A stretch of 64,000 bases of DNA from Dysidea avara (lineage: Eukaryota; Porifera; Demospongiae; Dictyoceratida; Dysideidae). Below are positions 49,455-64,000 of the stretch, in pieces (position 1 is the first letter of the stretch; the number at the start of each line of letters is the position of its first letter). The notes below the pieces were generated by a model. That model saw only the letters and a program-made list of their open reading frames with translations. It searched no databases and was not told the origin of the DNA. Both the position numbers and the translations under genes were made by a program. The stretch is from NCBI RefSeq assembly GCF_963678975.1, contig NC_089276.1:27113555-27177554 (forward strand). The letters run 5' to 3'.

Positions 49455-52400
49455 ATGCAGGCTTATCCACCAGTGAGGGATCACTATACCATTTTAACTA
49501 CTCACCTACGAGTGGAGCCATTGCTGCCACATCTCAAGCAGCACAACTGGCTGACTCCACCTGATCATGAGGCATTGAACAGGAGAGAGCTGGACCGGAA
49601 AAGGAAGGTTGAAATGATCGTGGGTATCCTGAAGATGAAGAATGGTAGAGTATGGTGTGATGAGGTGTTCTTGAGATGTGTACTCTTGAGTGGCCAAAAG
49701 GAAGTTGCTAAGATGTTGGGACATGTTGAAGAAATTCCTTCATACCCTTCACTGCAACCAATTGTAGACACCAGTAAGTGCATAATTGTGTGTGCGTGTG
49801 TGTGTAGTGTAGTTTGTGTGTGTGTGTGTGTGTGTGTGTGGTGTGTGATGTCATAGTGTGAGATTGTAGTGTGTTTATGTTTTTGTACTTTGTCTGTAAC
49901 ACAATCGTTAAATTGTGTCTGTAATGGTATGTTGAATGTATTATCTGATACCAGTTGGGGTTGTTACATATATTACTTTTGCAGTAGTGAGTAATATAAC
50001 GCATAGTAATGAGTAATATACCATATTTTCGAGGGATAAAACTTTTGTGAAACTGTGTAAAATACGATTCTCGCATTTTTTAATTCACAAAAGTCTAGTA
50101 AATGGTTTTGGAAAGGTAATAGCTATGTGTATAAACCTAAAACATTTCACGATTATGTTTTCATGGAGCTATCATTACTTGCAAAATTCATAAAAGTTTT
50201 GTCCCTCGGAATTTCTGGCTATACTGCATAAAGGATATTACATTTGGAATTATAATTCTTTTATTGCGCATTGTGTATATCCAACATGTGATAAGAGTTG
50301 AAGATAATGTTGCAGGTGTGAACAAAGAATGGAGACATGGGGGGTCCTCTTAAACTACAACAAAGCATGTTTCTTGTGGCTAAGCTACACCAGAGAAACA
50401 TGTGTAGAAACACATGGCTGGTAGCTTGTATTTGGGAGTTTAGACTTGCTTATACAGTAGTTTGTATTTAAAAATTATTAGTTACAGCCCTCAGAGTAAC
50501 ATGTAATTCGCAATTCATTACTTTTTACTGTGAGTAATATGTAACTGTAGTGCATTACATTGCTAAGAAGTAATGAACAACTTACATTAGTAAAGATCCC
50601 TGTGTGTGCAGTATTTGTGTTACAATGAAACATACATGCATGTTGTATGAACATTGTGTACATGCGAATACATGAGTAGACTGTGTAAGCGTAGATGTGT
50701 TTTTTGCTACTGTACTAAATATAGTGACAGCAGAACTCCAAGAGCAGTCCTGTTCTTATACCCACAATATTGACATTGCTATTGTGCTCCTGTTTCTATT
50801 ATTATTTAAACTTTCAACATATGTGACCCAGTCTGGGAAAACTGGTCTTATCGCCCATCTGAAAGTATCGAGAAACGCCAGTTTTAAATATCCAGAGTGT
50901 TGCCAACGGTGGTGCTACGCTTACCAAATTATCATATGTTTTACAACAATTTATTACCTTCCAGATCATCCACTGAAGAAGTAGTCAACAGCTAAGTTTC
51001 CCGCCATTTAGATAGTTTTTTTAACCGAGGTTGGCTGTATCAGGCAAGCTCTAAAAGGGGTGGGAGGCGGGGACCTGGAAGGCAGGAAAGATGCTGTTTA
51101 AAAATTAAAGAGGAACATTTTGGGATGAATTAGGCCAAGTTATGGACCATTCAGGTCTCAAAACTGGCTAAAATAAAAGGAAATTTCAACACCATGGAGC
51201 TGTACAGCCACATACAGCCATTCTCAGGCTGACCAGAGCTCCATTAAGGCCCCACACCACACGTATGGAGCGCCACTGGGCTTAGGAAAAGCCATATCAC
51301 ACTATTGTGATTGACACTTTGCGTAGTCAGCACAAAGAACTGGGACATGAAAGAGGACTAAGGGAAGTCTATGATGTGTCCACTGTATGTACTGTGATTC
51401 AGTACATTATTACAGGCTGTTGGTACTCGTGATTGATGAATTTTTTGACCCCTCAAAATTTGTGGGATCAGTTATTTTTTCCTTTAAGATTAACCCACTA
51501 AACTTACAAATGTTTTTGTAGCCATGAGAAAAGCTTACAAGTCTGTCACTTTAATACTTTCTGTGAGAGGTAAAATCTTTCATTGGACTAACCACAATTA
51601 GACTCTGGACTTCTTTTCACCCTCACCGGTAGTGAGACATGGACAGTCTGGCTTTTGCTTCCACAGTTTACAGCAGGTAGGGAGCTTCCACATTTTACAC
51701 CAAGTCCCCATTTAAACAGCCAGGTAGATTTTAATTAACTTGTTTGCTTGATAGCAACCAGAAGTTATTGAAACCAGGAAGTATGTGATCAGGAGACTGC
51801 CAGACTAGTGATCTAACTGATTGACTGTGCTGCCACAAACACTCAAATATGTATTCATGTAACACTTTCACACCTCAGATCAAAGGAGCCGTGCTGGCTA
51901 CATTTCTTATGTAGCCCAGCTAGCCAGGCTACATACGAAATGTAGCCGAGCTACAACTGGGCAGTGATTGTGTAGATGTTGAGGCCGAAATCGATTGTGG
52001 GGATCGATTAATACTCACGTGATTAGGATGCACAACTTGGATTTCGCCATGAAAACCACTCAGATGGAGAGCGTTTTGTTATCCTCACCATCCTACGAGT
52101 TGAAAAATGTTTGGCTAAGGTGAGAACTAGTGCTACAGTTTATTCACTGATCATTTCCTCACGTTTTTGAATATGGACACGCCCCTATCACGAAGCTACC
52201 ACTCTGCACGGAGTAACCACTCTACAAGCAAGCTTATCTATCTAGGCCTTTAGCAAACTTTATACTTTTTCCATTAACAATTCAATAGCACTGATTTAAA
52301 CATTAAACTCATGGAACCAAAGTTCTCCGTGATATCTCTAGGATATGTTTGTTTATCATAACCGAATGTAACCAGAACGTACTAGCTGCTGACCCATAAT

Positions 52401-55400
52401 TGAAGTTTTAGGTATGCGTACATAATATATCCAGTGGCTGCACTCTTATTGGCTTATGTGATTGATCGCCCTGTACAGGCTATCAGCCTGATAAATGTTA
52501 CATATTAGCTGTAACACGAGGCGTTCAGGCTTTGCCTGATATGTATGCCCTCTGCTCTCGGGCCTGTGGCCCTTGGGCAGTCGGGCATACGTATCAGGCA
52601 AAGCCCTCATGCCCGTGTTACAACTATTACATGTACACATGCACACAGGAAGTGTTTGGTATGGATATACATGTACACAGTTCATACTTGCCCATTTGAC
52701 TGTTCACTTCCTGGGTGCCTGCTAAACAGTGCTGGAAATTTTCCTGTAGGACGTTTGTATATGAACATACACACGCATGCACATGCACACGCACGCACAC
52801 ACAACATACACATTTTTACAACACACACATACATTTGTACAACACACACATACATTTGTACAACACACACATGTAACATGCACACACACACACACACACA
52901 CACACACACACACACACACACACACACACACACACACACACACACACACACACACACACACACACACACACACACACACACACACACACACACACACAAC
53001 ACACACACACGCACACACACACATGCACGCACACACACTTGTACAACATGTACACACACACACACACACACACATGCACGCACACACACTTGTACAACAT
53101 GTACACACACACACACACACACACATACACACATACACACATACACACACGCACGCACACACACACACACTTGTACATGTACATGTACGTCCTCATACAT
53201 ACATTCATGTGTACACCATCTGTGCATACAACACACAGTGTGAAGGCTTGTATGTTGTGTTTATTATTATTGTCTTTTTGGTATAGGTGTTGCAACTAGT
53301 GACATGGCTGCACAACCTCCTCTTGTGCTGGGTGCAGGAAGAAGAAGAATACCAAGTCATGAAGGTAGTGTTGTATATCAAGAAACTATGGCAATTAAAT
53401 AATCTTTCCTCTCTTGGTGATGGTTTAATCACTAAGAAAGTATTTAAATGATCTCCTAGTCATGTGTGCATACATCATAGAGAAAAATTTATTTACATTA
53501 TAAATATTTTTACATGTGCTTATATTAAGGAAGTGGCTTATCACTTAACACTTTTGCTATGAGTTTGCTACAGTATCAAGCTGGTCAGTTATTAACCTTG
53601 TCCCTATTTGGTATAAAAGTCAAACTACCAGGTGAGAAAAAGTGTATATCAAGTAGGTCGCTTTGACAGTTATCTTGTCAGTGAGTCTAAGAGAGTATAT
53701 GCATGGGGATGTATACCATAAGTCTAGGCTGTAATCAAGTATTACTGTACTGCAGTTGAAAGGCTTACACATCTGTAGTTGTTGTGGTTTTATACTTAGT
53801 CCAGCCATTTAGTGCCATGCGGAGTACATGAGTATACAGTTATGGACGTATATGCTGGTATCTGAATTTTAGAATATGTTGTCCACCAAACTAGATGTTT
53901 CTGTGTATAGTAAATTATGAATTTCACTTTGAACATCATTTCAGTTGTGGTCCTTTCACTATCATTTTGTGTGGCATTGAATGAGTTTGCCAAGAATGTT
54001 TGCTGGTCTGCTATTCTGTGTAGAAGAATATTATATTTTCAATACACTTTTATGTTGTAGAAGTGCCAAGTACCATTTGTTGTAGGACTTACTGTTATGT
54101 GGTTTGAATAACCTCACTATCGGATAGAGGTGTTGCCATTACTCACGTGGCGTGTCACCAGACCAGGCCCATGTACAGTGTGGATGGATACATACGTAGC
54201 AGCTGTTAATATTTCTCAGTTTTGTTCACTTGCTAGTCAGGTGTTATAAAGGATAATTCCAGTACATCTTGGTACACTTTGATATGAGTTTGTGTTGCTA
54301 CATCACCAGTAATTATATATTTTACAACCAAAAACGGCAGTGCTGATTTGGTTACAAGAATGTGTGTGTGTGTGTGTATAATATAACATATTGTGTGTAC
54401 AACGGTGTATATTAAGAAATTCAGTCTGCCAGCTGCAAGTTAAGCTTTGATTTGCAAATTTCGGACCTCACCCACATCACCCACTGTATAGTATGCCTAC
54501 ATGTGAGAAATGAAGGCTAACATATAAACTTGTACTAAATGTTTGTACAGTTAAATGATAAAATCTACATGTGTACTTGTACAGTACACGTATATAATTT
54601 AAAATAGTACTTTGTTGAGACTTCCATTATGTTTTTATTTTGTTGCAGTCCACCATCATGCATTCATTGTATACTCCAAAGAAGATGACCCTTCTAATTG
54701 TGTGAAAGACTTGTCAGATTTTTTAACTTACTGTGGAGTGGACTGTGATATTGACCAGTATCATACAACTGAGAATGTCCTCGACTGGGGACTGTGGAAT
54801 GAGGAACAAATCAGAAAGTGTGCTCACATGAATGGATATGTGCTACTGGTGTGTTCACTAAGACTGTACCAGCAACTCTGTGATGCCAGAAATAGTTCAC
54901 GGATTGAAATGAGAGCTGGGCATTTGACTAACTTAACATTGAACAGTTTAATAAAGGATTCAATTATAACACAGCGTGTTATCCCAGTGTTTCTTGAACA
55001 GCGAATGGAGTGTGTTCCTACTTGTGTTGCAGAGAGAACTTGTTATGCTCTTCACTGGAGTAGGGTGATGAATTGTGATTCTAATGCAGAAGCTAGTGTT
55101 ATCTTAAACACACCGGGACTAGAGTCTCTGAGGAGTCTGGTATGTAGGCTAAGGGACGAACCAGAGAATGTTAAACCAGAGGTAGCAACTACCCCAGGAC
55201 TAATATGTAAGTGTGTATATGACTGTGTCTTTCAGTAGAGGTGTGTGCATTCATGCATGTGTGCGATGTGTAATGTGTAGTGTGCGCATGCATTTACGTA
55301 GTGTGTGATGTGTGCATGTCTTATGATATTGTTTTCCTGTCTACATAGCTCCACCAGGCCCGTATCCACCAGCAAAGCCACAAGAAACACCTCCACCAGT

Positions 55401-63600: not shown

Positions 63601-63829
63601 TTTGTAGAAAGTATTTTTGTAGGTGTAGTATTGTATGTACATACCATACATGTATGCATGTTGTGTATGGGATATGTTGCACTATAATAAGGTACCCTAT
63701 ACTCTAGATGTACTTGTAATTGTTTGCTTTTGTGTAAGTGTGTTTTATCCTTTCACTAATCATTACTGAAATATACGTATTTCACAACACAAACCAGAAC
63801 TTTACAATCATTTCTCATTTAGGGAGGTT

Positions 63830-64000
63830 ATGGCAAGACAATATCACATACAAGATCATTATAGAAGCCTGATCAGTGAACTTCAGGTTGACCCAATCCT
63901 GCCGTACTTGAAGGATCTAAAATGGCTGACCACAGATGAATATGAAACTCTCATCTCACCAATGATGAACCGTCGACAGAAAGCTGAGAAGATTTTATTA
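63830..64000 (+). CDS. CARD-domain gene C, first exon, cut by the window end
   Basis: ATG at 63,830 opens 57 codons to the window edge: MARQYHIQDHYRSLISELQV, then DPILPYLKDLKWLTTDEYET and a RRQKAEKILL end. It matches the gene A CARD (RDHYTILTTHLRVEPLLPHL ... WLTPPDHEAL ... DRKRKVEMIV) at the same spacing, and its start aligns with the gene A start. An acceptor-like 'tttctcatttag' lies just upstream, so a 5' UTR intron is possible. By context it should continue with SEFIR and death exons beyond the window. Confidence 0.85.
   Translation, partial: MARQYHIQDHYRSLISELQVDPILPYLKDLKWLTTDEYETLISPMMNRRQKAEKILL

What the first reader, a model, noticed from the sequence alone, without database searches (positions are those of the whole stretch)
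49455..64000. Tandem array of CARD-SEFIR-death adaptor genes
Gene A joins three signalling modules: a CARD, a SEFIR domain and a death domain. Known SEFIR proteins are IL-17 receptors and Act1/CIKS; known death + TIR adaptors are MyD88-like. A CARD plus SEFIR plus death protein would be a MyD88-like adaptor built on the IL-17 fold, and I know of no described vertebrate counterpart. At least three units (A, B, C) lie in tandem, the pattern of a fast-evolving immune family.
Basis: partly seen in the sequence, partly recalled or inferred. Interest (0 to 1): 0.85.

Follow-up and report, generated by a model that had tools for sequence, protein, structure and literature searches.

The report
CARD-SEFIR-death adaptor gene cluster
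An animal genome, probably a sponge's, carries a small cluster of genes that appear to join an IL-17-type signalling module to two different death-fold modules, which could link cytokine-type receptors to two effector routes at once.

Summary
The domains are real. The window holds CARD_A, SEFIR_A, DD_A, then SEFIR_B and DD_B, and ends inside CARD_C, whose SEFIR_C and DD_C lie just beyond. A and C have the order CARD-SEFIR-DD; B has no CARD. SEFIR_A alone gets no Pfam hit, but its 89%-identical copy B does; the SEFIR profile's best PDB match is Act1. The chosen splice sites are phase 1 and join in frame. CARD_A and CARD_C are each other's best genome match, so CARD was probably duplicated with the rest. 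Against the simple model, A and B share a coding exon X with its own ATG upstream of SEFIR: both can start without CARD, and CARD may be optional in A. DD plus SEFIR is already known (non-amniote ACT1, a placozoan protein); the CARD and the C-terminal DD are the variation. No transcripts were available and no structure model could be made. Best reading: IL-17R/ACT1-type adaptors with an added, possibly optional, CARD. The genome also has IL-17-like cytokine exons, candidate SEFIR receptors and a DD-SEFIR gene.

The parts
49455..49773 (+). CARD_A exon: ATG at 49455, donor GTAAGT at 49774, phase 1
   Evidence: Pfam CARD 24.8 bits; donor 7/9, phase 1; reciprocal best genome match with CARD_C
53530..53631 (+). 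Exon X_A: ATG 53559, 'MSLLQYQAGQLLTLSLFGIKVK', donor GTGAGA phase 1, weak acceptor; alternative start without CARD, or an internal exon
   Evidence: conserved with B 56400-56516; over 22 aligned codons the differences by codon position are 3/1/10
54649..55206 (+). SEFIR_A exon, phase 1 at both ends
   Evidence: 89% identical to SEFIR_B; no Pfam hit alone; splice sites
55349..55716 (+). DD_A terminal exon: proline-rich linker, death domain, stop
   Evidence: Pfam Death 37.8 bits; acceptor phase 1
56400..56516 (+). Exon X_B: ATG 56438, donor GTGAGA phase 1; probable start exon of B
   Evidence: the DNA search of the genome found only this copy (it did not list even the 69%-identical A copy)
57423..57986 (+). 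SEFIR_B exon, phase 1 at both ends
   Evidence: Pfam SEFIR 31.8 bits, cut-off 23
58423..58769 (+). DD_B terminal exon with stop
   Evidence: Pfam Death 42.3 bits
63830..64000 (+). Start of CARD_C exon, which runs on to 64169; beyond the window: proline-rich exon 69020-69178, SEFIR_C 69477-70037, DD_C 70894-71189 (extended coordinates, locus L020)

Best explanation
A small tandem family of cytoplasmic adaptor genes of the IL-17-receptor (SEFIR) type. Genes A and C encode CARD - SEFIR - death domain proteins of about 400-450 residues; B encodes SEFIR - death domain with a short start exon. Proposed mechanism: the SEFIR domain docks on the SEFIR tail of an activated transmembrane receptor (candidate receptors and IL-17-like cytokines are encoded in the same genome); clustering then lets the C-terminal death domain and the N-terminal CARD each nucleate its own assembly, recruiting death-domain effectors (IRAK/MALT1/FADD-type) and CARD effectors (BCL10/caspase-type). 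In A the CARD may be switched in or out by use of the CARD exon or exon X as first exon. Shown: domains, splice phases, in-frame joins, reciprocal-best CARDs, purifying selection between A and B. Inferred: that CARD and SEFIR exons share a transcript, and every step of the signalling.
For: Domains. The SEFIR profile's best PDB match is Act1/TRAF3IP2 (E 1.8e-10), then bacterial SEFIR and IL-17RA; a profile of the A/B/C/L043 SEFIRs alone still finds Act1 (E 2.5e-4). A CARD profile (A, C and three CARDs or CARD-like exons from other loci) matches CED-3, CARD8, CARD9 and caspase-9 (E 6e-5 to 2e-3); the A/B/C DD profile matches PIDD, FADD and RIPK1. Joins: the chosen sites are phase 1 and all seven spliced combinations tested are in frame with one terminal stop. 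The order CARD-SEFIR-DD recurs in C at about 43% SEFIR identity, with CARD_A and CARD_C reciprocal best. CARD exons also lie upstream on the same strand at C1:1.70 Mb and C1:34.56 Mb, and a CARD-like exon with the same SGQ motif precedes the SEFIR at C5:31.6 Mb. Pathway context: four IL17-domain exons, SEFIR exons behind a transmembrane-like stretch (by eye), a DD-SEFIR gene.
Against: No transcript joins CARD to SEFIR. Exon X, 0.9-1.0 kb upstream of SEFIR in A and B, has its own conserved ATG and needs no CARD. CARD_A is 4.9 kb from SEFIR_A. SEFIR_A has no Pfam hit itself, and the genome-wide Pfam scans listed neither the SEFIRs of A, B, C nor the CARDs of A and C (150 of 331 candidates scored). 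CARD_A alone finds CARDs in the PDB only at E 0.66 or worse. The C5:31.6 Mb CARD-like exon has no Pfam CARD hit, and no DD was seen in the 3.1 kb after its SEFIR. Of 28 SEFIR exons listed only 5 have a detected CARD within 12 kb upstream on the same strand, and A and B share one of those CARDs. No structure model could be made.
Confidence: 0.62

Rival explanations
1. A and B are SEFIR-DD adaptors without CARD that start at exon X; the CARD_A exon belongs to a separate CARD gene next door. Only C, or none, is a true CARD-SEFIR-DD gene.
For: Exon X has a conserved ATG frame (codon-position differences 3/1/10) with indels of 9 and 3 bases after the ATG and a 2-base indel before it, as expected of a start codon. 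No CARD was found for B.
Against: The CARD_A exon is open up to a phase-1 donor that fits the SEFIR acceptor; the same CARD-to-SEFIR layout in C with reciprocal-best CARDs and upstream CARDs at two other loci; exon X also follows an AG and can be read as an internal exon.
Confidence: 0.27
2. A and B are one transcription unit: the CARD_A exon splices to either the SEFIR_A-DD_A or the SEFIR_B-DD_B cassette, giving two alternative carboxy-terminal halves. This overlaps with the best explanation and is not exclusive of it.
For: CARD_A to SEFIR_B is in frame. The first ATG within SEFIR_B lies about halfway through the domain (translation). The first AATAAA after the A stop is about 800 bases on, at 56522 (weaker TATAAA forms at 55903 and 56147).
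Against: Exon X_B supplies B with its own start; the terminal exon of A has its own stop.
Confidence: 0.2
3. B and perhaps the whole array are decaying duplicates.
For: B lacks the CARD exon.
Against: Both B exons are open; A-B dN/dS 0.17 (SEFIR) and 0.32 (DD) by NG86.
Confidence: 0.04

Closest known systems
ACT1/CIKS (TRAF3IP2) of non-amniotes, including C. elegans ACTL-1
   Same: SEFIR plus death domain; the SEFIR profile matches human Act1 best among solved structures; PMC7190641 passages describe the DD-SEFIR architecture and, for C. elegans, recruitment of IRAK and MALT1
   Different: the DD-SEFIR order there puts the DD first and the passages mention no CARD; here DD follows SEFIR and a CARD exon precedes it. 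The same genome has a separate DD-SEFIR gene at C3:23.70 Mb (L034)
MyD88 and MyD88-like proteins
   Same: a death-fold domain joined to a TIR-like domain; a placozoan SEFIR plus DD protein and two TIR plus CARD proteins are reported (PMC6321704 passages)
   Different: SEFIR instead of TIR; both CARD and DD in one predicted protein
IL-17 receptors
   Same: SEFIR domain
   Different: no transmembrane or extracellular exon noticed in A-C (by eye); such exons do occur next to SEFIR exons at C12 and C13 loci

Membership tests
SEFIR domain family | significant match to the SEFIR profile | tested here: met
   B 31.8 bits; 14 of 15 aligned exons match PF08357, the miss being SEFIR_A itself; profile matches Act1, bacterial SEFIR and IL-17RA
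ACT1/CIKS adaptors | SEFIR plus death domain without transmembrane segment | tested here: met
   A, B, C; absence of transmembrane segments judged by eye from the translations only
ACT1/CIKS adaptors | death domain N-terminal to SEFIR | tested here: not met
   DD exon is 3' of SEFIR in A, B and C
ACT1/CIKS adaptors | orthology with ACT1 | tested here: inconclusive
   own-genome SEFIR tree only, without known ACT1 sequences; L034 (DD-SEFIR) falls on the same side as A, B, C and L043 but on a very long branch
ACT1/CIKS adaptors | binds an IL-17 receptor and recruits TRAF/IRAK/MALT1 | not testable with these tools
   needs biochemistry
MyD88 | TIR domain | tested here: not met
   at E<=1 SEFIR_B matched SEFIR and no TIR family, and SEFIR_A matched no family; 4 of the 15 aligned rows, not named by the tool, also match TIR_2 (best E 6.9e-7)
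MyD88 | death domain | tested here: met
CARD proteins | CARD over the curated Pfam cut-off | tested here: met
   A 24.8 bits vs 23.9; C 22.0, below the cut-off

The most novel reading that the evidence does not exclude
A true two-headed SEFIR scaffold: one protein that couples an IL-17-type receptor to a CARD assembly and a death-domain assembly, with the CARD switched on or off by choice of first exon (CARD exon or exon X), in an animal that also has IL-17-like ligands. SEFIR being a symmetrical phase 1-1 exon would explain why CARD-SEFIR, CARD-SEFIR-DD, SEFIR-DD, DD-SEFIR and receptor-SEFIR forms appear to coexist in one genome.
Probability: 0.33. Interest if true: 0.7.

Novelty: new variant of a known kind. 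Interest (0 to 1): 0.5.

Why it matters
DD-SEFIR adaptors have been proposed as the original route by which IL-17 receptors signal outside amniotes (PMC7190641 passages), while CARD assemblies are usually separate (general knowledge). A protein carrying both would be a natural test of how these pathways were wired early in animal evolution. IL-17-like ligands, candidate SEFIR receptors and several SEFIR adaptor forms in one probably early-branching animal would make that origin directly testable.

Tried and rejected
Linker exon of C (69020-69178) sought in A and B: no convincing counterpart. A death domain upstream of CARD at C1:1.698 Mb (L040 22-348) was first seen by eye; no Pfam hit and E 0.001 with a local profile, so left open. 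Exon X as a dispersed repeat: disfavoured, one genome match, but that search also missed the A copy. B as pseudogene: disfavoured by dN/dS. PDB searches with single sequences were uninformative; profiles were needed. A scan of bacterial and archaeal genomes with the A/B/C/L043 SEFIR alignment gave two bacterial loci at 28% identity (L047, L048), not followed. NCBIfam gave no match for 4 of 4 exons tried; no tRNA in the window.
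Full report
What is there. The window is C5:27113555-27177554 of a 550.8 Mb, 108-contig genome. Pfam finds a CARD at 49452-49760 (24.8 bits), death domains in 55327-55716 (37.8 bits) and 58341-58769 (42.3 bits), a SEFIR domain from 57431 (31.8 bits) and a CARD cut off by the window end at 63824 (20.4 bits, under the cut-off). A profile of those 15 finds human Act1/TRAF3IP2 first among solved structures (E 1.8e-10), then bacterial SEFIR and IL-17RA; a profile of A, B, C and L043 alone still finds Act1 (E 2.5e-4). So the SEFIR reading stands, with that caveat.

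The third unit. Past the window end the sequence continues as unit C (L020): the CARD_C exon 63830-64169, a proline-rich exon 69020-69178, SEFIR_C 69477-70037 (about 43% identical to A) and DD_C 70894-71189 (Pfam Death 30.9 bits; CARD_C 22.0 bits, under the 23.9 cut-off). tblastn with the window's domains found no further unit in the rest of the window, nor in the 39 kb downstream and 20 kb upstream that were read (L020-L023, L038-L039). No CARD was found for B: local profiles found CARD in the window only at A and C.

Splicing. With the sites I chose, the CARD donors, SEFIR acceptors and donors, and DD acceptors of A, B and C are phase 1, and the in-silico products are in frame with a single final stop: 414 residues for CARD-SEFIR-DD of A, 451 for C with its linker exon, seven combinations in all. 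Phase 1 also holds for the candidate CARD donors and SEFIR acceptors at L040, L043 and L041/L042, though several of these donors are weak.

A complication. A and B share a further conserved block, 53530-53631 and 56400-56516, upstream of SEFIR. After a shared ATG (53559, 56438) the two align in frame with indels of three-fold length; over 22 codons the differences fall 3/1/10 by codon position, and dN is 0.14 against dS 0.82; before the ATG there is a 2-base indel. It ends in a phase-1 donor and has one match in the genome by DNA search (that search is insensitive, for it did not list the A copy). This is probably a first coding exon. Gene A would then have two beginnings, one with CARD and one without.

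Is CARD part of the gene? For: CARD_A and CARD_C are each other's best match genome-wide (E about 1e-10, the next at about 1e-3), so the CARD was probably duplicated with the rest and kept. Of 28 SEFIR exons (a lower bound: the union), 5 have a detected CARD within 12 kb upstream on the same strand (A and B share one), and none has an opposite-strand CARD within 12 kb on either side; about 0.05 are expected by chance for each class. Two same-strand downstream cases in that count are CARD_C seen from A and B. Leaving out the array that prompted the search, two loci remain (C1:1.70 Mb, C1:34.56 Mb; Pfam CARD 26.4 and 32.8 bits). The CARD list is itself a lower bound (150 scored of 331 candidates, without A and C), and immune genes cluster, so this is support and not proof. 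A further CARD-like exon precedes the SEFIR at C5:31.6 Mb but has no Pfam CARD hit.

Selection. A against B: dN/dS 0.17 in SEFIR (180 codons) and 0.32 in DD (88 codons) by NG86; 0.28 and 0.36 by YN00. Comparisons with C are near saturation or gave no estimate. B is therefore unlikely to be dead, and A and B look constrained rather than fast-evolving.

Context in the genome. SEFIR exons occur in several settings: DD-SEFIR at C3:23.70 Mb (L034; Death 34.8 bits), a possible DD-SEFIR-DD at C11 (L036; 22.4 and 44.8 bits, the first just under the cut-off), SEFIR-DD at C14:10.6 Mb (L037; Death 24.7 bits), SEFIR behind a transmembrane-like stretch at C12 with an fn3-like exon at one locus (24.2 bits, cut-off 25), and SEFIR with Ig-like exons (under the cut-off) at C13. 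Gene boundaries there are not proven, and transmembrane stretches were judged by eye. In a tree of 15 SEFIR exons a branch with support 93/94 has A, B, C, L043 and the long-branched L034 on one side and the other 10 on the other; C joins L043 with 83/75; 5 of 12 inner branches are drawn open. Four exons match the IL17 cytokine family over its cut-off, and the two that I translated look IL-17-like by eye, from recall of the pattern.

Mechanism. By analogy with C. elegans ACTL-1, which recruits IRAK and MALT1 homologues to IL-17 receptors (PMC7190641, passages), SEFIR would dock on receptor tails and the DD would recruit DD effectors. The extra CARD would add a second homotypic platform. The domains are shown; the wiring is inferred.

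Novelty. SEFIR plus DD adaptors are known. In ten paper searches of the held library I saw no report of CARD with SEFIR in one protein; I saw the listings, passages of five papers and one section of one of them, no whole text and no supplements, and the library lacks most subscription journals. The Dysidea avara paper gives one SEFIR sequence in the text and 2 in its table; if this genome is that species, which I could not test, the annotation missed most of the family.

Noticed in passing
G000 C9:29883598, C10:14503993, C4:19913495, C4:19918302 (L045, L046): Four exons match the IL17 cytokine family over its cut-off. A 2021 survey identified none in the sponge Amphimedon's genome, though it notes one Amphimedon IL-17 domain entry in Pfam (PMC8353272, passages and one section). 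If this is a sponge, IL-17-like ligands are older than that survey places them.
   Followed up: partly
L032, L033 (C12); L044 (C13): SEFIR exons preceded by a transmembrane-like stretch (by eye), with an fn3-like exon (L032) or Ig-like exons (L044), both under Pfam cut-offs: candidate receptors.
   Followed up: partly
L036 4914-9582; L037 6720-8292; L034 3075-4228: Other SEFIR and death-domain orders in the same genome: possible DD-SEFIR-DD, SEFIR-DD, and ACT1-like DD-SEFIR.
   Followed up: partly
window 54649-55206 and 57423-57986: A-B synonymous divergence (NG86) is lower in SEFIR (0.35) than in DD (0.58) or exon X (0.82, only 22 codons), which could reflect gene conversion of the SEFIR exon.
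   Followed up: no
window 5481-6137 (-): OTU-like cysteine protease domain (Pfam E 4.2e-13).
   Followed up: no
window 11392-12342 (+) and 23138-23440 (+): Reverse transcriptase (E 3.3e-38) and a weak integrase-core match under the cut-off, probably remains of mobile elements.
   Followed up: no
window 19254-20864 (-): Open frame of 537 residues without a Pfam match at E<=0.01.
   Followed up: no
window 43259-43663 (-): Exon with a weak FGE-sulfatase match (17.6 bits, under the cut-off).
   Followed up: no
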